Positions 13,256 to 39,129 of a stretch of DNA of 64,000 bases are shown in pieces. The DNA is from Clostridium niameyense. GTDB taxonomy: Bacteria; Bacillota; Clostridia; Clostridiales; Clostridiaceae. The first letter of the stretch is position 1, and the number at the start of each line of letters is the position of its first letter. The notes below the pieces were generated by a model. It saw only the letters and a list, made by a program, of their open reading frames with translations, did no database searches and had not been told where the DNA came from. The stretch is from NCBI RefSeq assembly GCF_001243045.1, contig NZ_LN849007.1:212970-276969 (forward strand), in the 5' to 3' direction. The position numbers and the translations under genes were made by a program.

Positions 13256-13885
13256 ATGGAAAGAAAAAAAAATATTTCAATGGCAGTTATAAGAAGGTTA
13301 CCTAAATATCATAGATATTTGAGCGAGTTATTAAATAATGATGTGGATAGAATATCTTCAAAGGAACTAAGTGAAAAAATAGGATTTACCGCATCTCAAA
13401 TAAGGCAAGATTTAAATTGCTTCGGAGATTTTGGTCAACAAGGATATGGATATAATGTTAATGAACTTTATCATCAAATAAATAACATTTTAGGATTAAA
13501 TTCACCATATAATGTGATAATAATAGGTGCAGGTAACATAGGTCAAGCGTTAGCTAACTATACTAGGTTTCCAAAATTGGGGATTGAAATTAAAGCTCTA
13601 TTTGACTTAAATCCTAAATTGATTGGTTTAAAAATAAGAGAAAAAGAAATAATGGACATTGATTACTTAGCTCAATACTTGCAAAAAGAAAACATCGATA
13701 TAGCAATTGTATCAGTACCGAATACGAATGCTCAAAAGGTGTGTGATATTTTAGTAGATAACAAAATAAAGGGTATCTGGAATTTTGCTCCGGTAGATTT
13801 AGTAGTACCAGAGGATATAGTAGTGGAAAATGTACACTTAAGTGATAGCCTTTTAACATTAACTTGCCTACTTAATAAGAAATAA
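13256..13885 (+). CDS. rex: Redox-sensing transcriptional repressor Rex
   Basis: Represses fermentation genes and is released from DNA when the NADH/NAD+ ratio rises. The 209-residue protein has an N-terminal winged helix (about 1-75, including SSKELSEKIGFTASQIRQDL) and a Rossmann domain with GAGNIGQAL near residue 92. The C-terminal helix, which swaps between subunits, is present. It is preceded by GAGGTG and appears monocistronic. A Rex-like operator sits downstream at 13936-13953. Confidence 0.96.
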   Translation: MERKKNISMAVIRRLPKYHRYLSELLNNDVDRISSKELSEKIGFTASQIRQDLNCFGDFGQQGYGYNVNELYHQINNILGLNSPYNVIIIGAGNIGQALANYTRFPKLGIEIKALFDLNPKLIGLKIREKEIMDIDYLAQYLQKENIDIAIVSVPNTNAQKVCDILVDNKIKGIWNFAPVDLVVPEDIVVENVHLSDSLLTLTCLLNKK

Positions 13886-13935: not shown

Positions 13936-13953
13936 TTGTTACGCTATTAACAA
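13936..13953. promoter_or_regulatory. Rex-like operator
   Basis: TTGTTA-N6-TAACAA, an 18-bp dyad matching the outer bases of the Rex consensus. It lies downstream of rex and 140 bp upstream of the glycosylase gene, not in the rex promoter. Confidence 0.55.
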
Positions 13954-21205: not shown

Positions 21206-21477
21206 ATTAACAACCTCCATATATTAATTATATTTTAATTTATATTACAAATAATAAGATAGTTGAATCAAATACGTCAATAATGTTTTAAAAAATATTT
21301 AAAAAAACCGAAAAAACAGCTATTTAATTATAATTTTATAGCTAAATTTATATATTTTAGCTATAAAGCATATTTGCTATTGAATTTATTCTTTTTATGA
21401 AGTATAATACTAACAAATATTTTTAATAAAAAGAATTTTTTATTTCTTTAAATAGAAATAATGCAATAAAAGATTCA

Positions 21478-21540
21478 ACTCATATATCCCCAAAATATGG
21501 TTGGGAGTGTCTACCGGAAACCCTAAATTTCTGACTATGA

Positions 21541-21542
<2 letters not shown>
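21478..21542 (+). ncRNA. Guanine riboswitch aptamer (purine class)
   Basis: Closing helix P1 of ACTCATA (21478-21484) with TATGAGT (21536-21542). The two hairpin loops and three-way junction segments, including the TCTACC motif, are canonical. The base that sets specificity in GACTATG is C, which indicates guanine or hypoxanthine rather than adenine. It lies about 100 bp upstream of guaB, consistent with feedback on GMP synthesis. Confidence 0.96.
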
Positions 21543-23099
<1,557 letters not shown>

Positions 23100-24748: not shown

Positions 24749-25060
24749 TGAAATAAGACTTTGAATCTTTGGTTTATTTTATTTAATTAATAAATATAGA
24801 AAAATAAAATCTTATAATTAACAATTATTGTTATTTTTTAGTATATATAATTAATCGTATATTTCTTATAAACCAGTAAAGTATGTTAAAAAGTACAACA
24901 AAGTATTAAGATGGAGTAACTTATATTAAAAGAATAGTAATAATTATACAGAAAAAATAATAAAATTGTTATATTTATTTCAATAATATTATATAATATA
25001 TATTATAAAAAAATATTATAAACCGCATAATTTAAGGCTTTGTGGGATGTAACGTTTTTA
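24749..25060. other. AT-rich intergenic region upstream of brnQ
   Basis: No gene, T-box or leader peptide is recognisable. A 15-bp palindrome, TAACAAT-T-ATTGTTA, lies at 24819-24833. A less AT-rich block at about 25020-25052 directly precedes the brnQ promoter and could hold a regulator site. Confidence 0.4.
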
Positions 25061-25125: not shown

Positions 25126-26439
25126 ATGACAAAACAAAAAAGGTTTAATGATGTTTTTGTACTAGGATTCGCACTGTTTGCTATTTTTTTTGGAGCCGGG
25201 AATTTAATTTTTCCACCTAGTTTAGGATTGGCTGCAGGAAAACATTGGCCACTAGCTGCGTTAGGATTTCTTCTCACAGATCCGGTACTGCCAATCTTAG
25301 GTGTAATAGCAACATCTAAGGCTGGAGGAAAGGCGGAAGACTTAGGCAAAAGAGTTAGTCCTACTTTTGCAAAAGCTTTAGGAGCATTATGTATTTTAGT
25401 TGTTGGACCTTTATTTTCAATTCCTAGAACATCTGCTACAGTATATGAAATAGCAGTAAAACCTTTTATGCCCAATTCACCTATTATAATTACATCTGTT
25501 ATATTTTTTATTCTTACCTATCTTTTTGTTGTTAATCAGAATAGCGTTATGGAGAAAATCGGAAAATATTTAACACCTGCCTTATTAATTATACTAACTG
25601 TTATAATAATAAAAAGTATAATAAAGCCTATAGCACCAATGATAGATCCCAAGCCTAATAATTTCTTCTTACTAGGTTTTAGGGAAGGTTATCAGACTAT
25701 GGACGCTTTAGGAGCATCCCTTATGTCTGGAATAGTATTAACAGACTTGATTTATAGGGGATATAAAGAAAGAAAAGATCAAGAAGTTATGACTAATAAA
25801 ATTGGCTTAGTAGCTGGTGCTCTATTACTATTTATATATGGTGGTTTAACATATGTAGGAGCCACAGGCGGAGATTTATTTAAACCAGGTATTAGTAGAG
25901 TTGATTTGTTATTAGGATTAGTAACTAAACTTTTTGGAACTACAGGAGCAGTTGCCACTTCAATAGTAGTATCTTTAGCCTGTTTAACAACATCTGTAGG
26001 TCTTACAGCCACTACTGCGAATTATTTTAATAGTATAAGTAAAGGAAAAATTTCTTATAAATTCATGTCTATAGCTGTTGTTTTATGTAGTTTATTTTTA
26101 TCTTTAATTGGTGTAGAAGGTTTAATTAATATAGCAGTTCCAATCTTAGCTACTATCTATCCCGTAATAATAGTTTTAATTGTTATGACATTATTTGATA
26201 AGTACATTCCTAACGGTAATACTTACACAGGGGCTGTGTTAGGGGCATTTTTAGTTAGTTTTGTTATAAATGTAAATGATGCTACAGGATTATTAGGTGG
26301 ACCTATGAAAGTTGTGAAAAAATTACCTCTTTTTGAAGGCGGGTTTCCTTGGATTCTACCAGCTGTAGTTTTAGGAATTATATTTATGATTTATGGAAAG
26401 AGCAAAGAAACTAAGAATGTAAATCATGAGAATTTTTAA
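25126..26439 (+). CDS. brnQ: Branched-chain amino acid carrier BrnQ
   Basis: Sodium-coupled importer of leucine, isoleucine and valine (LIVCS family) in the cytoplasmic membrane. The 437-residue length and about 12 hydrophobic helices fit the family, and the N-terminal FFGAGNLIFPPSLG motif is diagnostic. In this metabolism it would supply branched-chain amino acids as Stickland electron donors. It is preceded by AAAGGAG and a good promoter, and is transcribed alone. Whether it prefers a particular branched-chain amino acid cannot be read from the sequence. Confidence 0.95.
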   Translation: MTKQKRFNDVFVLGFALFAIFFGAGNLIFPPSLGLAAGKHWPLAALGFLLTDPVLPILGVIATSKAGGKAEDLGKRVSPTFAKALGALCILVVGPLFSIPRTSATVYEIAVKPFMPNSPIIITSVIFFILTYLFVVNQNSVMEKIGKYLTPALLIILTVIIIKSIIKPIAPMIDPKPNNFFLLGFREGYQTMDALGASLMSGIVLTDLIYRGYKERKDQEVMTNKIGLVAGALLLFIYGGLTYVGATGGDLFKPGISRVDLLLGLVTKLFGTTGAVATSIVVSLACLTTSVGLTATTANYFNSISKGKISYKFMSIAVVLCSLFLSLIGVEGLINIAVPILATIYPVIIVLIVMTLFDKYIPNGNTYTGAVLGAFLVSFVINVNDATGLLGGPMKVVKKLPLFEGGFPWILPAVVLGIIFMIYGKSKETKNVNHENF

Positions 26440-26492: not shown

Positions 26493-26525
26493 TGAAAACG
26501 TTTTAATGAATTTAAACGTTTTAAA
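26493..26525. promoter_or_regulatory. Tandem cre-like sites upstream of fldL
   Basis: Two copies of AAACGTTTTAA 18 bp apart. The first (26493-26506) matches the CcpA cre consensus TGWAARCGYTWNCA with one mismatch, and the second with two. This suggests carbon catabolite control of the fld operon. Confidence 0.45.
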
Positions 26526-26554
26526 CAGTAGGGAGATATACGGCGAAAAATTCC

Positions 26555-26687
26555 AAAATAAAACAATATTATACTTTAAAAGATATTTTTTTCAACAAAG
26601 TCCCATAAAATAATACGAATTTGACAAAAATAAAACAATATAATTTGACAAAAATAAAACAAATGCAATTGACAAAAATAAAACAAT
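26555..26687. repeat. Operator-like repeat array, 24-bp period
   Basis: The unit TTGACA plus AAAATAAAACAAW occurs at 26621, 26645 and 26669, exactly 24 bp apart. A fourth core, without the TTGACA, occurs at 26555, 72 bp (three periods) upstream of the next. The last unit forms the -35 of the fldL promoter. The arrangement looks like a cooperative regulator-binding array. Confidence 0.7.
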
Positions 26688-26697
26688 GTGATAATCT
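26669..26697 (+). promoter_or_regulatory. fldL promoter
   Basis: Perfect -35 TTGACA (26669-26674), 17-bp spacer, TAATCT (26692-26697). The element is closely repeated before fldH at 38071-38099. Confidence 0.8.
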
Positions 26698-26814
26698 GGT
26701 CTTGATGGAAAAGACAGAAAATAAAAAATAAATGCAATATAAAAAAAATTATTACACTATGCAAATGTTTATTTTATTTTTTATTAATAAATTTAAAGAA
26801 TTTGAGGTGTATTT

Positions 26815-28422
26815 ATGGGACTTTATAATATTACAATAGGCGATTATCTTAAAAATACTTGTAGAAAATTCCCGAATGATATTGCTATTCAATCTTTGAA
26901 AATGCACAAAAATATTTCATGGAGTGAGCTTGATAAAATTACAGATGATATAGCCAAAGGAATGATAGCTTTAGGATTAAAAAAAGGTGATCACTTAGTA
27001 CTTTGGGGTTCAAACAAAAAAGAATGGATATACATTTTTTTAGCATCAAGTAAAATTGGTGTATGTACAGTAACTTTAAATACTAATTATGTGTTAGATG
27101 AAGTAGAAAAGATTCTAGCCATGGCAGATGCTAAAGCTATAGCATTTATGGAGGAATTTTATAATACAAGCTATATAGATATTATTGAGAAGATTAAAGA
27201 AAGATATAATAAAGGTATATCTAAGATACCACAATTAATGAAGCATTTTATTTATTTTGGAGATAAAAAACGTCCAGAATATACAAATATAGATGATTTA
27301 ATTTCATTAGGTAAAAATATTAAAGAAGAAGATTTTAAATTAATTTGTAATAAAGTAAAACCAGATGAAGTAGTTAATATTCAATTTACATCTGGAACTA
27401 CAAGTGCTCCTAAGGGAGTTATGTTAACACATTATTCGCTTGTAAATACCTCCTATATTACAGGGAATAGTTTAGATATAACACATAAGGACAAACTATG
27501 TTTAGTTGTTCCATTTTTTCATTGTTTTGGTTTGTCAGCAGGAATACTTTTATGTATTGGAAGTGGATGTTCTATGGTTTTAGTAGAATCCTATAAGATA
27601 GATCCTCTTGTAAATTCTGTTAAACAATTCAAATGCACAGTTCTACATGGTGTTCCTACTATGTTTTGTAGAGTATTAGAGAATTCTAATGTAAATATGA
27701 AAGATTTTTCAAGTGTAAGAACTGGATTAATAGCGGGGGCAGCTGTTAGTAAAAAATTGCTTGATGGCATTTTAGAAAAAATGAATATAAAGGATATTCA
27801 AGTTGCCTATGGACAAACAGAAACTTCTCCAGGATGCACCCAAACTACAAAGGCAGATTCTGTAGATAAGAAATACACTACTGTTGGCAAATCATTACCT
27901 TATGTGGAAATGAAAATTTTCGATACAGTTTCTAAAAAAGAAGTAACTGTAAACAATGTAGGAGAAATATGTGTTAGAGGGTTCAACTTAATGAAAGGTT
28001 ATTATAAAAATCAACAATTAACTAATAAGACCATAGATGAAGATGGATGGCTTCATACTGGTGACTTAGGTTTTATAGATAAGGAAGGATATTATCATAT
28101 AACTGGAAGGATTCAGGATGTAATTATAAGAGGTGGAGAAAATATAAATCCTAAAGAAATAAGAGAAAATTTATTATTACATCCAGAAGTACAAAAGGCA
28201 GAGATTATAGGAATTCCAGATCAAAGATATGGGGAGGAAATAGCTGCCTGTATTATCTTAAAAGAAAATAGTTCTTTAAATAAAGAGGATATAAAAAAAT
28301 ATATGAGTGAAAGATTAGCTCATTACAAAGTTCCGAAGTATATCAAATTTTATAACGAATTCCCTTTAACAGATACAGGGAAAGTTAAAAAATGTGAATT
28401 AAAAAATAATTTCAAAAATTAA
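26815..28422 (+). CDS. fldL: AMP-forming acyl-CoA ligase of the fld cluster
   Basis: ATP-dependent CoA ligase of the adenylate-forming superfamily, 535 residues. Motifs are the phosphate-binding loop TSGTTSAPKG (about 194-203), YGQTETSPG (about 340), HTGDLG and GRIQDVIIRGGENI before the mobile C-terminal domain. The final catalytic lysine is in the TGKVKKCEL segment. In this position its likely substrate is an aryl-lactate, aryl-acrylate or aryl-propionate. It could supply the first aryl-CoA that FldA then exchanges. It has its own promoter, and 182 bp separate it from fldA. Substrate is inferred from context; the symbol follows the C. sporogenes cluster naming as I recall it. Confidence 0.85.
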   Translation: MGLYNITIGDYLKNTCRKFPNDIAIQSLKMHKNISWSELDKITDDIAKGMIALGLKKGDHLVLWGSNKKEWIYIFLASSKIGVCTVTLNTNYVLDEVEKILAMADAKAIAFMEEFYNTSYIDIIEKIKERYNKGISKIPQLMKHFIYFGDKKRPEYTNIDDLISLGKNIKEEDFKLICNKVKPDEVVNIQFTSGTTSAPKGVMLTHYSLVNTSYITGNSLDITHKDKLCLVVPFFHCFGLSAGILLCIGSGCSMVLVESYKIDPLVNSVKQFKCTVLHGVPTMFCRVLENSNVNMKDFSSVRTGLIAGAAVSKKLLDGILEKMNIKDIQVAYGQTETSPGCTQTTKADSVDKKYTTVGKSLPYVEMKIFDTVSKKEVTVNNVGEICVRGFNLMKGYYKNQQLTNKTIDEDGWLHTGDLGFIDKEGYYHITGRIQDVIIRGGENINPKEIRENLLLHPEVQKAEIIGIPDQRYGEEIAACIILKENSSLNKEDIKKYMSERLAHYKVPKYIKFYNEFPLTDTGKVKKCELKNNFKN

Positions 28423-28604: not shown

Positions 28605-29843
28605 ATGGGAAATAGTACAAACATGTTTGAAGGAGTAAAGGTTATAGAATTAGCTAATTTTATAGCTGCACCTGCAGCAGGAAGATTTTTTGCAGATGGT
28701 GGTGCAGAGGTAATAAAAATTGAATCTCCTAAGGGTGATCCTTTAAGATATACAGCTCCATCTGAAGGTAGACCATTAATTGAAAATGAAAATACTACTT
28801 ATGATTTAGAAAATGCAAATAAAAAGGCAGTTGTTATAAATCTTAAAAGTGAAAATGGTAAAAAGATATTACATGAAATGTTAGCAGAAGCAGATATATT
28901 ATTAACTAACTGGAGAACTAAAGCTTTAGTTAAACAAGGTTTAGATTATGAAACATTAAAAGAAAAATATCCTAAGTTAGTTTATGCCCAAATAACTGGT
29001 TATGGCGAAAAAGGTCCTGATAAAGATCTTCCAGGCTTTGATTATACTTCATTCTTTGCAAGAGGTGGTATTTCAGGTACTATTTATGAAAAGGGAACTG
29101 TGCCTCCAAATGTTGTTCCAGGACTTGGAGATCATCAAGCTGGTATGTTCTTAGCGGCAGGTATGGCAGGAGCTTTATATAAAGCAAAAACAACAGGAAA
29201 AGGAGATAAGGTAACAGTAAGTTTAATGCATAGTGCAATGTATACATTAGGTATTATGATACAAGCTGCTCAATACCCAGATCATGGTTTAGTATATCCA
29301 ATAAATCGTCAAGAAACTCCTAATCCATTTATAGTTTCATATAAATCTAAGGATGGATATTTTATTCAAGTATGTATGCCTCCATATGATGTTTTCTATG
29401 ATAGATTTATGACTGCTTTAGGTAGACAAGATTTAGTTGGAGATGAAAGATATAACAAAATAGCAAATCTAAATGCTGAACGTGTTAAAGAGGTAAGTAA
29501 GATACTTACAGAACAAATGGCTACAAAGACAAAAGATGAATGGGATAAAATATTTAGAGAAGCAGATATTCCGTTTGCTATAGCACAAACTTGGGAAGAT
29601 ATATTAGAAGATGAACAAGCTTGGGCAAATGATTATTTATACAAGATGAAATATCCAACTGGTAATGAAAGGGCATTAGTAAGACTTCCAGTATTCTTTA
29701 AAGAAGCAGGATTACCAGAATATAATCAAGCACCATTAATAGCAGAAAATACTGAAGAAGTATTAAAAGAAATGGGATATACAGATGATCAAATTAGGGA
29801 ACTAATTGAAAATAAAGATGTTATGGTAAGGAATGAAAAATAA
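28605..29843 (+). CDS. fldA: Cinnamoyl-CoA:(R)-phenyllactate CoA-transferase
   Basis: Family III (CaiB/BaiF) CoA-transferase that moves CoA from aryl-acryloyl- or aryl-propionyl-CoA to an incoming (R)-aryl-lactate. The 412-residue length is typical. D176 in the GLGDHQAG motif corresponds to the catalytic aspartate of the family. The N-terminal [25 protein letters not shown] is the family fold signature. AAGGAGGAG precedes the start. The stop codon overlaps the fldI start, so the two are translationally coupled. FldA copurifies with FldBC in C. sporogenes. Confidence 0.96.
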
Positions 29844-30637
29844 TGGCAGATATTTATACCATGGGAGTGGACATAGGTTCTACTGCATCTAAAACAGTAA
29901 TATTGAAAAATGGAAAAGAAGTTATAAGTCAGGCTATAGTAGATGTAGGGGCAGGAACAAGTGGGCCTAAAAGGGCAGTAGATGAAGTATTAAAAAAAGC
30001 AAATTTATCTATTGAAGATTTGGGGTACATTGTGTCTACGGGATACGGAAGAAATAATTTTGAGTTTTCTAACAAACAAATATCAGAATTAAGCTGTCAT
30101 GCAAAAGGTGTATATTTTGACAATCCTAAAGCAAGGACAGTGATTGATATAGGTGGTCAAGATATTAAAGTATTAAAATTAGCTGAAAGTGGAAGACTTT
30201 TAAATTTTATAATGAATGACAAGTGTGCTGCAGGAACAGGGAGGTTTTTGGATGTAATGTCTAGAGTAATTGAAATTCCAGTTGATGAACTGGGAAAGAA
30301 AGCATTACAAAGCAAAAATCCATGTACTATTAGTTCTACTTGTACAGTGTTTGCAGAATCAGAAGTTATCTCTCAACTTTCAAGAGGTGTTACAACAGAA
30401 GATTTAGTAGCAGGAATTTGTAAATCTGTAGCATCAAGAGTGGCTAGTCTTGCAAAAAGAAATGGTATTGAAGCGTTAGTAGTTATGAGTGGTGGAGTTG
30501 CTAAAAACGTAGGAGTAGTTGAAGCCATGAAAGATGAATTACAGACAGATATTTATGTATCAAAAAATTCCCAATTGAATGGAGCGTTGGGGGCAAGTCT
30601 ATATGCTTATGAAAGTTTTAAAAAAGAAAGGGGATAG
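29843..30637 (+). CDS. fldI: Activator ATPase of 2-hydroxyacyl-CoA dehydratase
   Basis: Archerase that hydrolyses ATP to push one electron into FldBC; it must act under strictly anaerobic conditions. The 264-residue protein has the ASKHA nucleotide motif [10 protein letters not shown] at its N-terminus. C128 ([11 protein letters not shown]) and C167 ([12 protein letters not shown]) would each supply ligands to the single [4Fe-4S] cluster at the dimer interface. The start shares one base with the fldA stop, and fldB follows after 5 bp. Confidence 0.97.
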
Positions 30638-30642
30638 AAAGC

Positions 30643-31866
30643 ATGACTGATAAGAAAAATGAGGTAAAACAAAAAAAAGCAAAGCATTACCTTAGAGAAA
30701 TTGTTGCAAAGCATTATGAAGATGCTCTTGAAGCAAAGAAAAACGGAGAAAAGGTGGGCTGGTGTGCATCTAACTTTCCCCAAGAAATACCTACAACATT
30801 AGGGTTAAAAGTTATCTATCCAGAAAACCATTCAGCAGTAGTAGCTGCAAGAGGAAATGGACAAAAAATGTGTGAACATGCTGAGGCGATGGGATTCTCA
30901 AATGATGTATGTGCTTATGCAAGAGTAAACTTGGCTATTATGGATCAAGGACATAGTGATGATCAACCAATACCTATGCCAGACTTCGTACTTTGCTGTA
31001 ATAATATATGCAATCAAATGATTAAATGGTATGAACATATAGCTAAAACTTTAAACATACCAATGATTTTAATAGATATTCCATATAACACAGAAGATAC
31101 TATCTCCGAAGATAGGGTTAAATATATTAGAGGACAATTTGAACATGCAATAAAACAACTTGAAGAAATAACAGGCAAAAAGTGGGATGATAAAAAATTC
31201 GAAGAAGTTATGGAAATATCTCAAGAAAGTTCAAAACAATGGTTAAGAGCTGCATCTTATGCAAAATATAAACCATCTCCATTTAGTGGTTTTGATTTAT
31301 TTAACCATATGGCAGTAGCTGTTTGTGCAAGAGGTACAAAGGAAGCTGCAAAAGCTTTTAAAATGTTAGCAGATGAATATGAGGAAAATGTTAAAACAGG
31401 AAAGTCGACTTATAGGGGAGAAGAAAAACAACGTATATTATTTGAAGGAATTGCTTGTTGGCCATATTTAAGACATAAGTTAAATGTTCTTAGTGAGTAT
31501 GGAATGAATGTAACTGCAACTGTATATGCGGAAGCTTTTGGAGTTATATATGAAAACACTAATGAATTAATGGCTGCTTATAATAAAGTTCCAAATTCAA
31601 TTAGTTTTGAAAATGCATTAAAGATGAGAGTTAATGCTGTTAAAAGCACTAATACAGAAGGTGCAGTAGTTCATATAAATAGAAGTTGTAAATTATGGAG
31701 CGGATTCTTATATGAATTATCAAGAAGACTAGAAAAAGAAACAGGAATTCCAGTAGTTTCATTTGATGGTGACCAAGCAGATCCAAGAAACTTCTCAGAG
31801 GCACAGTATGATACTAGAATACAAGGCCTTAATGAAGTAATGGTTGCTAAAAAGGAGGCTGAATAA
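30643..31866 (+). CDS. fldB: (R)-Phenyllactyl-CoA dehydratase, FldB subunit
   Basis: Larger subunit of the oxygen-sensitive dehydratase that removes water from (R)-aryl-lactyl-CoA by a ketyl-radical mechanism. The 407-residue protein belongs to the HgdA/FldB family, with conserved cysteines in FVLCCNNICNQM that ligate the cluster and a C-terminal YDTRIQGL motif. The start follows AAAGGGG, 5 bp after fldI. Its stop is one base before the fldC start, with GGAGG inside its end, so fldB and fldC are coupled and probably made in equal amounts. Confidence 0.96.
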   Translation: MTDKKNEVKQKKAKHYLREIVAKHYEDALEAKKNGEKVGWCASNFPQEIPTTLGLKVIYPENHSAVVAARGNGQKMCEHAEAMGFSNDVCAYARVNLAIMDQGHSDDQPIPMPDFVLCCNNICNQMIKWYEHIAKTLNIPMILIDIPYNTEDTISEDRVKYIRGQFEHAIKQLEEITGKKWDDKKFEEVMEISQESSKQWLRAASYAKYKPSPFSGFDLFNHMAVAVCARGTKEAAKAFKMLADEYEENVKTGKSTYRGEEKQRILFEGIACWPYLRHKLNVLSEYGMNVTATVYAEAFGVIYENTNELMAAYNKVPNSISFENALKMRVNAVKSTNTEGAVVHINRSCKLWSGFLYELSRRLEKETGIPVVSFDGDQADPRNFSEAQYDTRIQGLNEVMVAKKEAE

Positions 31867-31867
31867 T

Positions 31868-32992
31868 ATGTCAAATGTAGATAAATTGTTTAACGAGTTT
31901 AAGGACATAGTAGAAGATCCTAAGAAACATATAGAAAGATATATGAAGGAAACTGGTAAAAAGGCTATAGGGTGTATGCCTTTATATAATCCAGAGGAAA
32001 TCATAGTAGCATTAGGAATGTTCCCAGTTGGAGTATGGGGTTCTAATACAAGTCTTTCAAAAGCTAAAACATATTTTCCAGCATTTATTTGTTCAATACT
32101 ACAAACAACTTTAGAAGACGCTTTAAATGGAAAATATGATATGTTATCTGGAATGATGATTCCTAATTATTGTGACTCTTTAAAGTGTATGGGACAAAAT
32201 TTTAAACTAACTGTTGATACTATTGAATTTATTCCAGTAACTATTCCACAAAACAGAAAACTAAAGGCTGGAAAAGAATTTTTAAACAGTCAATATAAAA
32301 TGAATATTAAACAGTTGGAAAAGATATCTGGTAATAAGCTTACAGATGAATCTTTAGAAAAAGCTATAGAAATGTACAATGAACATAGCAAAACAATGAA
32401 TGAATTTTCAAAGTTAGCATCAGAATGCCCAGGTATAATATCACCAACTAAGAGAAATTATGTTATGAAATCTGCTTATTTTATGGATAAAGGGGAACAT
32501 ACTGAAAAAGTTAAAGAACTGATGAATGAAATAAGGAAAATAGAGTGTAAGCCATTTGAAGGAAAAAGAGTTATAACTACAGGAATAATTGCTGATTCAG
32601 AAGATTTATTAAAAATCTTAGAAGAAAATAATATAGCTATTGTTGGGGATGATATAGCTCATGAATCTAGACAATATAGAACATTGATACCAGAAGCAGA
32701 TACTCCATTGGATAGATTATCTGAACAATTTGCAAATAGAGAATGTAGTACTTTATACGATCCAGAAAGAACAAGAGGCAAAAATATAGTTGAGATGGCA
32801 AAGGAAAGAAAAGCGGATGGAATTATATTCTTCATGACAAAATTTTGTGACCCAGAAGAATATGATTATCCACAAATGAAAAAAGATTTTGAAGAAGCAA
32901 AAATTCCACATGTAATAATAGATACTGATATGCAAATGAAAGATTATGAACAAGCTAGAACTGCAATTCAAGCTTTTGCAGAAACACTTTAG
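31868..32992 (+). CDS. fldC: (R)-Phenyllactyl-CoA dehydratase, FldC subunit
   Basis: Smaller subunit of the FldBC dehydratase, 374 residues, HgdB family. The cluster-binding cysteines are in PNYCDSLKCMGQ (about residue 100) and FMTKFCDPEEYDYP (about 325). An upstream in-frame TTG at 31844 has no proper ribosome site, while AAGGAGG is placed correctly for the ATG at 31868. It pairs with FldB at the core of the aromatic reductive pathway. A 137-bp gap containing a hairpin separates it from acdA. Confidence 0.96.
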   Translation: MSNVDKLFNEFKDIVEDPKKHIERYMKETGKKAIGCMPLYNPEEIIVALGMFPVGVWGSNTSLSKAKTYFPAFICSILQTTLEDALNGKYDMLSGMMIPNYCDSLKCMGQNFKLTVDTIEFIPVTIPQNRKLKAGKEFLNSQYKMNIKQLEKISGNKLTDESLEKAIEMYNEHSKTMNEFSKLASECPGIISPTKRNYVMKSAYFMDKGEHTEKVKELMNEIRKIECKPFEGKRVITTGIIADSEDLLKILEENNIAIVGDDIAHESRQYRTLIPEADTPLDRLSEQFANRECSTLYDPERTRGKNIVEMAKERKADGIIFFMTKFCDPEEYDYPQMKKDFEEAKIPHVIIDTDMQMKDYEQARTAIQAFAETL

Positions 32993-33022
32993 CATATTAT
33001 TTAAGTATTTAGTATAAGAAAT

Positions 33023-33080
33023 AACATTGATTTTTCTTAAAATTAAATAGAATATTTTAATCTAGAGAAAAATCAATGTT
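33023..33080 (+). promoter_or_regulatory. Hairpin between fldC and acdA
   Basis: Perfect 15-bp stem (AACATTGATTTTTCT with AGAAAAATCAATGTT) with an inner TAAAAT/ATTTTA stem and no strong T run. It resembles the hairpin before fldA and is followed by the same TATAAGCTAATAGAAA block. It may be a partial terminator or processing site that sets the ratio of dehydratase to reductase. Confidence 0.55.
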
Positions 33081-33129
33081 TATATTTATATAAGCTAATA
33101 GAAATTCTTAAAATATTAGGAGGGATATG

Positions 33130-34263
33130 ATGATTTTCACAGAACAACACGAACTTATTAGAAAATTAGCAAGGGATTTTGCAGAAAAGGAAATAGAAAC
33201 TATAGCAGACGAAGTGGATAAAACTGCCGAGTTCCCTAAAGAAGTCATCGACAAAATGGCTAAGCTTGGATTTTTTGGAATAAAAATGCCTAAAGAATAT
33301 GGCGGTGCAGGGGCTGATACTAGAGCTTATGTAACTATAATGGAAGAAATATCCAGGGCTTCTGGCGTTGCTGGAATATATTTATCATCACCTAACTCAT
33401 TACTTGGAACACCATTTTTACTAGTTGGTACAGAAGAACAAAAAGAAAAATATCTAAAACCAATGATTAAAGGTGAAAAGAAATTAGCTTTTGCTTTAAC
33501 TGAACCAGGAGCTGGATCAGATGCAGGCGCTATTGCAACAACTGCTAAAGAAGATGGAGATTATTATATATTAAATGGAAGAAAAACATTTATTACAGGA
33601 GCTCCAATATCAGATAATATTATAGTATTTGCTAAGACAGACATGAGTAAAGGAACAAAAGGAATTACTACATTTATAGTAGATAGTAAACAAGAAGGAG
33701 TATCTTTTGGTAAACCTGAAGAAAAGATGGGTATGATTGGATGTCCAACTAGTGATATTATTTTAGAAAATGTAAAAGTTCATAAGTCAGATATACTTGG
33801 AGAAATAAATAAAGGATTTATAACTGCAATGAAGACTTTGAGTGTTGGACGTTTAGGAGTTGCAGCGCAAGCACTAGGAATAGCTCAAGCTGCTGTAGAT
33901 GAAGCGGTTAAATATGCAAAACAAAGAAAGCAATTTAATAGACCAATTGCTAAATTCCAAGCTATTCAATTTAAATTAGCTGACATGGAAACTAAATTAA
34001 ATGCTGCAAAATTATTAGTATATAATGCTGCTTACAAAATGGATAAAGGAGAAAAAGCAGACAAAGAGGCTGCTATGGCAAAATACTTTGCGGCTGAATC
34101 TGCTATTCAAATAGTAAATGATGCATTACAAATACATGGTGGCTATGGCTACATAAAAGAGTATAAGGTAGAAAGATTATATAGAGATGTTAGAGTAATT
34201 GCTATATATGAAGGAACTTCTCAAGTTCAACAAATGGTAATAGCGTCAAATCTTTTAAAGTAA
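33130..34263 (+). CDS. acdA: Acyl-CoA dehydrogenase (aryl-acryloyl-CoA reductase)
   Basis: FAD enzyme reducing cinnamoyl-, coumaroyl- or indoleacryloyl-CoA to the propionyl-CoA, with electrons from EtfBA. The 377-residue protein has the flavin-binding LTEPGAGSDAG motif (about 124-134). The catalytic base E361 is in the IYEGTSQVQ motif. Two tandem ATGs exist; AGGAGG sits 5 nt before the second, which is used here. etfB starts 12 bp after the stop, so acdA-etfB-etfA form one transcript. It is the counterpart of CarC in caffeyl-CoA reductase. Confidence 0.95.
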   Translation: MIFTEQHELIRKLARDFAEKEIETIADEVDKTAEFPKEVIDKMAKLGFFGIKMPKEYGGAGADTRAYVTIMEEISRASGVAGIYLSSPNSLLGTPFLLVGTEEQKEKYLKPMIKGEKKLAFALTEPGAGSDAGAIATTAKEDGDYYILNGRKTFITGAPISDNIIVFAKTDMSKGTKGITTFIVDSKQEGVSFGKPEEKMGMIGCPTSDIILENVKVHKSDILGEINKGFITAMKTLSVGRLGVAAQALGIAQAAVDEAVKYAKQRKQFNRPIAKFQAIQFKLADMETKLNAAKLLVYNAAYKMDKGEKADKEAAMAKYFAAESAIQIVNDALQIHGGYGYIKEYKVERLYRDVRVIAIYEGTSQVQQMVIASNLLK

Positions 34264-34275
34264 GGAGTGAACGAA

Positions 34276-35070
34276 TTGAAAATAGTTGTATGTGTAAAAC
34301 AAGTACCAGATACTAATGAAGTAAGAATAGACCCTGTAAAAGGAACCCTTATTCGTGAAGGTGTGCCTGCTATATTAAATCCAGATGATGCTAATGCTTT
34401 AGAGCAAGCATTAAGATTAAAGGATCAATATGAAAATGTAAAAGTTACAGTACTTACTATGGGAATACCATCTTCATCTTATATGTTAAGAGAATGTTTA
34501 GCAATGGGGGCAGATGAAGCTATATTAGTAACGGATAGAGCTTTTGCAGGAGCAGATACATGGGCTACATCTAATGCTTTAGCTTCAGCTTTAAGAAAGG
34601 TAGGAGATTATGACTTAATATTTGCTGGGAGACAAGCAATAGATGGCGATACAGCTCAAGTTGGACCTCAAATAGCAGAAAGACTTAATATCCCTCAAGT
34701 AACTTATGTTATGGGCTTTGATTATAATAAAGATAAAAATACACTAATTGTAGATAGACAATTAGAAGATGGATATGAAAGAGTTCAAATTAAATCTATG
34801 CCAGCTTTAATTACTGCCATTAATGAATTAAATGAGCCTCGTTATATGACTGTTGGAGGCATAGTAGATGCATATAAAAAAGATATTAAGATATTTACAA
34901 TTAAAGATTTAGATGTTACTCCAGATGAAGTAGGTTTAAATGCTTCTCCAACTTCAGTATTTAGATCATTCGCACCAGATAAAAAACAACAAGGTGTTAT
35001 GTTGAATGGAACACCTGAAGAAATGGTAGGAAAATTAGTAACAGAACTTCAATCTAAACATTATATTTAA
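34276..35070 (+). CDS. etfB: Electron transfer flavoprotein beta subunit
   Basis: Small ETF subunit of 264 residues, beginning [15 protein letters not shown] as usual for the family, with the AMP/FAD-binding [11 protein letters not shown] and the recognition-loop region around residues 190-200. The start is TTG at 34276 after AAGGAGTGA; a GTG 9 bp upstream is in frame but too close to the ribosome site. In bifurcating ETFs this subunit binds the FAD that splits electron pairs. It sits between acdA and the ferredoxin-fused etfA. Confidence 0.94.
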
Positions 35071-35087
35071 GTTTTGGGAGGGTTATT

Positions 35088-36290
35088 ATGGCTATTAATA
35101 TAAACAAAGAAAAATGCAAAGCATGTGGTATATGTGAAAAGCAATGCCCATTTGATGCTATTCATGTAGTTAACGGATTAGCAGAAGTAAATGAAAAGTG
35201 TACAATATGTGGATCTTGTGTAGAAGCTTGTCCATTTGATGCAATAGAAAAAGAAGAAAAAAAAGCTGTAAAAAAAGATATAAGTGCATATAAAGGTGTA
35301 TGGGTATATGCTGAACAAAGACAAGGAGAACTTACTCCAGTAGTAATAGAATTATTAGGAGAAGGTAAAAAATTAGCTGACGAAATAGGAACAGATTTAT
35401 CTGCAATTTTATTAGGTGATAATGTAGGAGCGTTAGCGGAAGAACTAGTAAAATATGGAGCAAATAAAGTATATGTAGCAGATGATAAAAAATTAGAAAA
35501 CTATACAACAGATGCTTATACAACAGTAATTTCAGATGCTATCAATGAATATAAACCGGAATCAGTTCTATTTGGAGCCACTCATATCGGAAGAGATTTA
35601 GCTCCTAGAATTGCAGCAAGAGTTGATACTGGACTTACAGCTGATTGTACAAAATTAGAAATAGATCCTGAAGCTAAAAACGTAAAACAAACTAGACCTG
35701 CATTCGGTGGAAACCTAATGGCAACTATAGTATGTAAAAACCATAGACCACAAATGTCTACAGTAAGACCTGGAGTTATGGAAAAGGCACAATTTAATGA
35801 AGATAATAAAGGTGAAATAATAAATTTAAAAGTAACCTTAAGTGAAGATGAGATAAGAACTAAAGTTTTAGAAATAATTAAATCTTCTAAAAAGCAAGTT
35901 TCTTTAGTTGATGCAGACTTTATAGTATCTGGTGGTAAAGGACTTGGAGATGCAGATGGATTTAAATTATTACAAGAATTAGCTGATTTATTAGGTGGAG
36001 TAGTAGGCAGTAGCCGTGCAGCTGTTGATATAGGATGGATAGATCATTCACATCAAGTTGGACAAACAGGAACTACAGTAAAACCAATAATCTATATTGC
36101 TTGTGGTATATCAGGAGCTATTCAACACGTAGCAGGTATGTCAAATTCAGATGTAATAATTGCTATAAATAAAGATGAAAATGCACCAATATTTGAAATA
36201 GCTGATTATGGAATAGTTGGTGATCTATATAAAGTAGTACCAATATTAATTGAAGAAATAAAAAAGATTAAAGAATCTAAAGCTGTATAA
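35088..36290 (+). CDS. etfA: Electron transfer flavoprotein alpha subunit with N-terminal ferredoxin domain
   Basis: The 400-residue protein is longer than a standard EtfA (about 320). The extra N-terminal 65 residues hold two [4Fe-4S] ligand sets, [12 protein letters not shown] and [12 protein letters not shown]. The EtfA core follows, with the FAD-binding [20 protein letters not shown] segment and the CGISGAIQH motif. Such fused EtfA proteins occur in the bifurcating caffeyl-CoA reductase (CarE) of Acetobacterium. Here it probably links AcdA to NADH and ferredoxin. It follows etfB with GGGAGG in the gap. The bifurcating role is an inference from architecture. Confidence 0.95.
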
Positions 36291-38070: not shown

Positions 38071-38112
38071 TTGACAAATAACAAACAATATGATATTCTG
38101 GAATTGATCGAA
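38071..38112 (+). promoter_or_regulatory. fldH promoter, twin of the fldL promoter
   Basis: TTGACA (38071-38076), 17 bp, TATTCT (38094-38099). Over 42 positions from TTGACA, 34 are identical to the fldL promoter, including ACAAT-N-TGATA in the spacer and -10, and TCTGG-NN-TTGAT after it. This implies shared regulation. Confidence 0.8.
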
Positions 38113-38139: not shown

Positions 38140-39129
38140 ATGAAGATTTTAGCATATTGTGTAAGACCAGACGAAGTTAGTTCTTTTGAAAAATTCTCAA
38201 AAAAATATGGACATGATGTAAAGATGATACCACAATCTTTTGGACCAGAAGTAGCTCATCTAGCTGAAGGATATGATGCGGTTTCAATATTGGGAAATTG
38301 TAAGGCTAATAGAGAAGCTTTAGAAAAGATAAAATTTTATAATATAAAATACTTAGCAACTAGATCTGCAGGGGTAAATAATATAGATTTCGAAGCTGCT
38401 AAAGAATTTGGCATAAATGTAGCCAATGTTCCAGCTTATTCACCAAACTCAGTTTCTGAATTAACAATAGGTATTACATTATGTTTAACTAGAAAAATAC
38501 CTTTTGCGTTAAAAAGAGTTGAATTAAATAATTTTGGATTAGCTGGACTTATAGGTACAGAATTAAGAAATGCAACTATAGGAGTTATTGGTACAGGAAG
38601 AATTGGATTTGAAGTAATTAAGGCATTCTCAGGTTTTGGGGCTAAGATGATAGGTTATGATATTATAGAAAATGAGAAAGCTAAGGAATATATAGAATAT
38701 AAAACTTTAGATGAAGTATATAAAGAAGCAGATATAATAACTTTACACACTCCTTTAACAAAGGAAAACTATCATATGATAGGAAAAGAAAGTATAGAAA
38801 AGATGAAAGATGGAGTTTTAATAATAAATGCAGCTCGTGGGGCATTAATTGATGGAGATGCATTAATAGAAGGATTAAAATCAGGTAAAATTGGAGGAGC
38901 AGCATTAGATAGTTATGAGTATGAACAAGGTGTATTCCATAACAATAAAATGAATGAAATTATGAAAGATGATACATTAGCAAGACTTAAGAGCTTTTCT
39001 AATGTAGTAATAACACCTCATATGGGATTCTATACAGATGAAGCTGTATCTAATATGGTGGAAACTACTCTTATGAATCTACAACAATTTGAAAAAGAAG
39101 GAAAATGTAAGAATCAATTAGGTAAATAA
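38140..39129 (+). CDS. fldH: Aryl-lactate dehydrogenase (D-2-hydroxyacid family)
   Basis: NADH-dependent reduction of phenylpyruvate, hydroxyphenylpyruvate and indolepyruvate to (R)-aryl-lactates, the first reductive step. The 329-residue protein has the Rossmann motif GVIGTGRIG (about 148-156), the substrate arginine in NAARGALIDG, and the catalytic H294 in the TPHMGF motif. The start follows AGGGGG. It has its own promoter resembling that of fldL, and a terminator follows. The D-lactate dehydrogenase fold agrees with the R-configuration needed by FldA and FldBC. Confidence 0.95.
   Translation: MKILAYCVRPDEVSSFEKFSKKYGHDVKMIPQSFGPEVAHLAEGYDAVSILGNCKANREALEKIKFYNIKYLATRSAGVNNIDFEAAKEFGINVANVPAYSPNSVSELTIGITLCLTRKIPFALKRVELNNFGLAGLIGTELRNATIGVIGTGRIGFEVIKAFSGFGAKMIGYDIIENEKAKEYIEYKTLDEVYKEADIITLHTPLTKENYHMIGKESIEKMKDGVLIINAARGALIDGDALIEGLKSGKIGGAALDSYEYEQGVFHNNKMNEIMKDDTLARLKSFSNVVITPHMGFYTDEAVSNMVETTLMNLQQFEKEGKCKNQLGK

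What the first reader, a model, noticed from the sequence alone, without database searches (positions are those of the whole stretch)
26555..26697. 24-bp-period operator-like array ending in the fldL promoter
Seen directly: the unit TTGACA plus AAAATAAAACAAW recurs at exactly 24-bp steps (26621, 26645, 26669), with a further core 72 bp (three steps) upstream at 26555. Only the last copy has a -10 box, so the other TTGACA copies are not working -35 elements. Regular spacing suggests cooperative regulator binding. No known regulator is assigned to this motif as far as I know.
Basis: partly seen in the sequence, partly recalled or inferred. Interest (0 to 1): 0.72.

Follow-up and report, generated by a model that had tools for sequence, protein, structure and literature searches.

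The report
Iterated promoter half before Stickland operon
Ahead of a clostridial operon that reduces amino acids such as phenylalanine, half of the operon's own promoter is repeated three times at exact 24-base steps, probably as extra binding sites for whatever controls it, although no binding protein is known and no close relative could be compared.

Summary
The array is real. TTGACAAAAATAAAACAA stands at 26621, 26645 and 26669 without a mismatch; a fourth AAAATAAAACAA core lies 72 bp upstream in register. In 1000 intergenic shuffles no 3-copy run exceeded 10 bp. Only copy 3 completes a sigma-A promoter (17-bp spacer, TG-extended, weak -10 TAATCT).

The window's fldH promoter (38071) has it once. 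In 9 of 12 relatives read, one promoter with a similar A-rich spacer precedes fldI, uniterated. The relatives carry a CTTGT..ACAAG element (7 exact, 4 variant, of 12) and a GntR homolog in the locus (11 of 12); the window shows neither.

Variable columns fall only in the 6-bp linkers (P 0.003), so the 18 bp look constrained. Best reading: an operator cluster made by copying a promoter half, for an unidentified regulator. Neutral duplication is a serious rival. Rex sites, bent DNA and the GntR element were tested and do not fit. No close relative was held, so conservation is untested.

The parts
26496..26521 (.). two AAACGTTT palindromes 18 bp apart (LacI/CcpA-type operator look; the first lies in a cre-like site with 1 mismatch)
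   Evidence: the only exact AAACGTTT in the 64 kb; cre consensus recalled
26555..26572 (+). distal core copy AAAATAAAACAATATTAT, without TTGACA, 72 bp (3 steps) above the core of copy 1
26605..26620 (+). eroded, 1-bp shifted partial copy
   Evidence: TRF array starts at 26605
26621..26644 (+). unit 1: TTGACAAAAATAAAACAA + linker TATAAT
26645..26668 (+). unit 2: TTGACAAAAATAAAACAA + linker ATGCAA
26669..26697 (+). unit 3 = fldL promoter: -35 TTGACA 26669-26674, 17-bp spacer, TG at 26689-26690, -10 TAATCT 26692-26697
   Evidence: start site not mapped
26815..28422 (+). fldL-like acyl-CoA ligase, first gene of the operon; GAGGTG ribosome site 26804-26809
28605..36290 (+). fldA, fldI, fldB, fldC, acyl-CoA dehydrogenase, etfB, etfA
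   Evidence: fldI passes the CoA_E_activ cut-off; fldB and fldC match HadB and HadC models best but below their cut-offs; etfB and etfA named from recall, not scanned
38071..38099 (+). fldH promoter: one copy of the same half, TTGACA-17-TATTCT with TG extension
38140..39129 (+). fldH-like D-2-hydroxyacid dehydrogenase
   Evidence: models below cut-off

Best explanation
The array is the -35/spacer half of an fld promoter, copied in tandem upstream of the fldL operon. One sigma-A promoter (unit 3) is complete and drives the operon; fldH has the same promoter half once. Shown: the sequence, the promoter anatomy, the spacer likeness to fld promoters of relatives, identical 18-bp units with divergent linkers. 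Inferred: a regulator recognises the 18-bp half; bound at unit 3 and at fldH it competes with RNA polymerase, and at fldL the further copies at 24-bp pitch let several dimers sit side by side and sharpen the response, much as in phage-type operator clusters. It would take the place of the GntR/CTTGTwwACAAG control that the relatives' loci suggest.
For: Three exact 18-mers at 24 bp, 0 of 1000 shuffles. All 5 variable columns lie in the 6-bp linkers; P = 120/42504 = 0.003 with free choice of frame. fldL unit 3 and fldH are the most alike of 1830 pairs of promoter-like sites in the window outside the hexamers, 24 of 33 against mean 10.0. Fld promoters of relatives share the A-rich spacer: 8.8 vs 4.6 of 14 positions for 9 fld sites against 16 other TG-extended sites, Mann-Whitney 3e-5; the 8 best of 25 are fld sites, the ninth fld site (G122) scores among the others. 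The distal copy keeps the A-rich core and not TTGACA. In the relatives: GntR homolog in 11 of 12 loci, CTTGT..ACAAG element in 11 of 12 leaders (7 exact, 4 variant; 11 of 902 control pieces, which include the fld leaders themselves); neither in the window.
Against: No regulator identified and no binding, start-site or expression data. fldL/fldH likeness is weaker against AT-rich shuffles (best 31-bp pair 26 matches, reached by 3 of 500), and about one hit with up to 3 mismatches to the unit is expected per window (1.14 in shuffles). The 8 fldH leaders read in relatives show no TG-extended promoter, so a common fldL/fldH promoter half is seen in the window only. The spacer likeness among relatives is not independent (shared descent) and part of it is A-richness; unit 3 itself would fail the -10 rule used there (3 of 6, rule 4). 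fldH has only one copy, so iteration is not needed for the promoter. Three recent copies can be identical because they are young.
Confidence: 0.42

Rival explanations
1. Neutral microduplication: slippage copied a 24-bp promoter piece; units 1 and 2 are inert and only unit 3 matters.
For: Outer steps are eroded or lost (26573, 26597, 26555); the 9 relatives' fldI promoters have no copy 24 bp up (4 to 8 of 18 identical, against 18 of 18 in the window), so one copy suffices there; fldH has one copy.
Against: Variable columns all in the linker, P 0.003; the 72-bp register of the distal core is kept.
Confidence: 0.32
2. The upstream halves are docking sites for RNA polymerase or A-rich UP-like DNA that strengthens the promoter, without a dedicated regulator.
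For: Perfect -35 hexamers and A-tracts in each unit; similar TTGACA/A-rich promoters occur at 16S rRNA operons (2 of the 4 hits, read). Just above the array (26572-26612) the predicted bend lies at the 85th to 92nd percentile, and for 26540-26700 only 6% of shuffles bend as much over 63 bp.
Against: The array itself is not bent: 17.5th percentile at 26652, array segments not above shuffles; 24-bp pitch is not helically phased; the distal copy lacks TTGACA.
Confidence: 0.15
3. An array of Rex redox operators (18 bp, TTG...CAA ends; rex is encoded at 13256-13885; the fld pathway consumes NADH).
For: Length and outer triplets agree; Rex protein confirmed (362.6 bits, cut-off 233).
Confidence: 0.05

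Closest known systems
fldI promoter with GntR/FCD regulator gene and CTTGTwwACAAG element in other genomes of the order (as read here)
   Same: TTKACA-17-TG-extended -10 promoter with A-rich spacer ahead of the same pathway
   Different: not iterated; element starts 40-41 bp after the first base of the -35; different gene order (mostly fldI-B-C-ligase-acd-etfBA-fldA); window lacks regulator gene and element in its 64 kb
Lambda-type operator clusters (recalled)
   Same: 17-18 bp sites with 6-7 bp linkers, about 24 bp centre to centre, last site overlapping a promoter
   Different: unit is palindromic only in its outer 3 bp (TTG...CAA); no repressor known
Rex operators of Clostridia
   Same: 18 bp, TTG...CAA ends, NADH-linked pathway
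   Different: central AA-N4-TT core incomplete (4 mismatches)
CcpA cre / LacI-type operators
   Same: palindromes AAACGTTT lie in the same intergenic region (26496, 26514)
   Different: they are separate from the array

Membership tests
sigma-A promoter (unit 3) | TTGACA, 16-18 bp, -10 or extended -10 | tested here: met
   TTGACA-17-TAATCT with TG; -10 matches TATAAT at only 3 of 6, helped by TG; the scan, which asks for 4 of 6, does not list it
sigma-A promoter (unit 3) | mapped transcription start | not testable with these tools
   no transcript data
sigma-A promoter (units 1, 2) | -10 at 16-18 bp | tested here: not met
   TTTGAC and ATTGAC stand at 17 bp
Rex operator | 18 bp with TTG...CAA ends | tested here: met
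Rex operator | at most 2 mismatches to TTGTTAANNNNTTAACAA | tested here: not met
   4 mismatches by eye; criterion from PMC5367854 passages
GntR/FCD element of fld operons | CTTGTwwACAAG or the variants seen in relatives near the promoter | tested here: not met
   no match, exact or variant, on either strand of the window; best 5 mismatches to CTTGTATACAAG ahead of fldL and 4 ahead of fldH
GntR/FCD element of fld operons | GntR homolog in the locus | tested here: not met
   none in 64 kb by tblastn 1e-5; 11 of 12 relatives have one
lambda-type cooperative operator cluster | about 24-bp centre spacing, 17-18 bp sites | tested here: met
   the feature itself is recalled
lambda-type cooperative operator cluster | palindromic operator | tested here: inconclusive
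   only TTG...CAA is palindromic
lambda-type cooperative operator cluster | cognate dimeric repressor binding cooperatively | not testable with these tools
   needs binding assay
phased A-tract bent promoter | curvature of the array above shuffles | tested here: not met
   segments 26600-26700 and 26615-26695: fraction of shuffles at or above observed 0.40 to 0.66; the wider segment 26540-26700 gives 0.63 (31 bp) and 0.06 (63 bp)

The most novel reading that the evidence does not exclude
A still undescribed regulator reads the -35/spacer half of fld promoters; in this lineage its site was multiplied into a 24-bp cluster after the GntR control of the pathway was lost, so that fldL and fldH form a rewired two-promoter regulon for reductive aromatic Stickland metabolism (indolepropionate and phenylpropionate formation).
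Probability: 0.27. Interest if true: 0.62.

Novelty: new variant of a known kind. Interest (0 to 1): 0.42.

Why it matters
The fld pathway makes indolepropionate and related gut metabolites (established knowledge). In eight literature searches no listed title or abstract start named a regulator of the fld genes. The data suggest two control layouts for one pathway: GntR plus palindrome in most of the relatives read, and a promoter-half array in this lineage. That gives a defined DNA bait, two target promoters and a clear deletion test.

Tried and rejected
Rex array: rejected on consensus. Bent DNA: the array is not curved, though the stretch above it is somewhat. CodY: no site with up to 2 mismatches lies in the fldL or fldH intergenic region; 3-mismatch sites were not listed in full. 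GntR element: absent. RNA leader: no Rfam family there at gathering threshold; 26699-26840 folds no better than shuffles (z -0.37). A small ORF through the array (24 bp = 8 codons): set aside by reading, since the 18 bp agree at all positions and I saw no ribosome site. Phage or plasmid origin: the exact 18-mer is in 16 viral contig stretches, singly and in other settings; AAACAATNTGATANTCTGG in 2, inside coding-like DNA; FldH has no viral relative; the fld region gave no match in plasmids or phages except three weak Spiroplasma/Stammera hits to 26546-26595; hits of 42900-64000 shown lie near the tRNA cluster. TTGACA x3 at 24 bp, up to 1 mismatch: 4 of 206 genomes, among them an 8-bp satellite (G461) and an exact 24-bp repeat of another sequence (G420, contig 226, not its fld contig 53); the reversed control matched in 15 genomes by my count, so this is background. 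That pattern would miss TTTACA arrays; one search covers the 9 fldI promoters directly. Composite fldL/fldH pattern, up to 3 mismatches: 4 of 206 genomes, control 3 of 206, none at fld genes. Close relatives by FldL protein at 1e-160: 0 of 225 genomes of the order.

Full report
WHERE IT LIES. The array is in the 375-bp space (18.4% GC) between a branched-chain amino acid transporter gene (brnQ, 25126-26439; Pfam Branch_AA_trans) and an acyl-CoA ligase gene (26815-28422). The ligase is followed by a CoA transferase, dehydratase activator, dehydratase subunits closest to HadB/HadC models, acyl-CoA dehydrogenase, etfB and etfA, an amino-acid permease, and at 38140 a D-2-hydroxyacid dehydrogenase. 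The order guaB-guaA-six genes-acdA-etfB-etfA agrees with locus numbers cbo3296 guaB, cbo3295 guaA, cbo3288 acdA, cbo3287-3286 etfB2A2 that I saw in passages of PMC3933689, so the window most likely comes from the C. sporogenes / C. botulinum Group I lineage. That is an inference; no tool named the source.

OBSERVATION. Units TTGACAAAAATAAAACAA at 26621, 26645, 26669 are identical; linkers are TATAAT, ATGCAA, TGTGAT. The AAAATAAAACAA core returns at 26555, 72 bp above the core of unit 1, without TTGACA. Shuffles of the intergenic region never gave a three-copy run above 10 bp in 1000 trials; the array has 18. Of 24 columns 5 vary, all inside the 6-bp linker; allowing any circular frame the chance is 120 of 42504, 0.003. 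So the array is real and the 18 bp seem constrained relative to the linkers.

PROMOTER. Only unit 3 is complete: TTGACA-17-TAATCT with TG one base before the -10; the -10 itself is weak (3 of 6). Unit 1 has a TATAAT in its linker, but 12 bp from its TTGACA. The window holds one other site with 0 mismatches to TTGACANNNANNAAACAATNTGATANTCTGG, at 38071, ahead of fldH; the next best has 7 mismatches (the pattern was derived from these two sites, so the gap is not a test by itself). Among 61 promoter-like sites with 17-bp spacers, the fldL/fldH pair is the most alike of 1830 pairs outside the hexamers (24 of 33, mean 10.0, sd 2.8). Against this, the best ungapped 31-bp match of the two AT-rich spaces (26) is reached by 3 of 500 shuffled pairs, and 1.14 hits with up to 3 mismatches to the unit are expected per window; five were seen: the three units, fldH, and one on the minus strand at 24983. 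The shared promoter half is therefore likely, not certain.

RELATIVES. No genome is held for the window and no close relative turned up: the full-length FldL relatives in the genome-contig scan reach 43% identity, with one partial match at 50% (best 80 of 104 kept), and 0 of 225 genomes of the order of G122 reached 1e-160 (the tool warns that an empty answer without a positive control shows little). One (G394) has too short a contig; the other 12 were read for 450 bases upstream of fldI. Where the stretches read show the whole cluster, the order is mostly fldI-fldB-fldC-(permease)-ligase-acd-etfBA-fldA, unlike the window. In 9 of 12 one promoter-like site TTKACA-17-TAnnnT with TG extension precedes fldI; G420, G395 and G430 lack it by this rule (-35 at least 5 of 6, -10 at least 4 of 6). 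The window's unit 3 would itself miss that -10 rule. The first 14 spacer positions of these sites resemble unit 3 (mean 8.8 of 14) more than 16 other TG-extended sites in the fetched loci do (4.6; Mann-Whitney 3e-5), and likewise the fldH spacer (8.6 vs 4.3, 3e-4); the 8 best of 25 are fld sites, the ninth (G122) scores 7 like three others. The sites are related by descent and A-rich, so the p-values are optimistic. None of the 9 has a copy of its promoter half 24 bp up (4 to 8 of 18 identical; window 18 of 18; best at any step of 18-30 bp is 11). Of 8 fldH leaders read in relatives none has a TG-extended promoter, so the fldL/fldH likeness is not repeated there.

THE OTHER LAYOUT. Seven of 12 fldI leaders hold an exact CTTGTwwACAAG and 4 more a variant (CTTGTATACTAG or CTTGTTACTAG), 11 in all; in the 9 with a promoter the element starts 40-41 bp after the first base of the -35. 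The motif was chosen after seeing the leaders, but 902 control pieces of the same loci hold only 11 (variants included), the fld leaders among them. Eleven of 12 loci hold a GntR homolog, 9 at 51% identity or more (one of the nine is the query itself, one match in G498 is broken into pieces) and 2 at 36-37%; G420 has neither element nor homolog. The query was confirmed as GntR plus FCD. None of the 8 fldH leaders has the element. The window has no homolog in its 64 kb and no such element, exact or variant, on either strand; a homolog elsewhere in its genome cannot be excluded.

WHAT IT IS. The unit is best described as the -35/spacer half of an fld promoter. In the window it has been iterated upstream; I saw no such array at the fld promoters of relatives. 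Copying by slippage explains the origin. Whether the copies do anything is the open point. Constraint on the 18 bp against the linkers, the kept 72-bp register of the distal core, and the survival of its A-rich part without TTGACA favour binding sites for a protein. Eroded outer steps and the single copy at fldH favour a neutral or weakly useful duplication. The 24-bp pitch (2.3 turns) is not in helical phase, but 17-18 bp sites with 6-7 bp linkers are the layout of lambda-type operator clusters (recalled, not tested), so cooperative side-by-side dimers are possible.

OTHER REGULATORY LOOKS. Two AAACGTTT palindromes, the only exact ones in 64 kb, lie at 26496 and 26514; the first sits in a cre-like site with one mismatch, one of two such places in the window, so carbon control may act beside the array. 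A strong promoter-like site on the minus strand (TTGAAA-16-TATAAT, 26595 to 26568, 11 of 12 matches) lies between the distal core and unit 1 (that scan found 7 sites where shuffles give 4.5, sd 2.0). The stretch 26572-26612 above the array is somewhat bent (85th to 92nd percentile), the array is not. Rex, CodY and RNA-leader readings gave no support.

LITERATURE. I saw search listings (titles and abstract starts of the top rows), and passages only of PMC3933689, PMC5583490, PMC5367854 and PMC8457756. Nothing listed describes control of fld genes or this array; most subscription papers are not in the library. PMC3933689 passages put acdA among strongly repressed and etfB2A2 among moderately repressed genes after cold shock, which suggests that the operon is regulated but not how.

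VERDICT. Observation confirmed; interpretation partly supported. A new variant of a known kind (promoter with iterated putative operator), moderate interest, mainly because it marks what may be a second, GntR-free control layout for the fld pathway and gives a testable bait.

Noticed in passing
26597-26609 and 26812-26824: 13-nt perfect inverted match: AAAGTCCCATAAA above the array is the reverse complement of the fldL start-codon region; if a longer transcript existed it could cover the start codon. Not tested for chance.
   Followed up: no
26568-26595, minus strand: Promoter-like TTGAAA-16-TATAAT (11 of 12) facing brnQ; possible antisense RNA.
   Followed up: no
26496-26521: Twin AAACGTTT palindromes 18 bp apart, unique in the window; cre/LacI-type.
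   Followed up: partly
13936-13953: TTGTTACGCTATTAACAA, 1 mismatch to the Rex consensus, just downstream of the rex gene.
   Followed up: no
   Followed up: partly
21460-21557: Purine riboswitch ahead of guaB.
   Followed up: no
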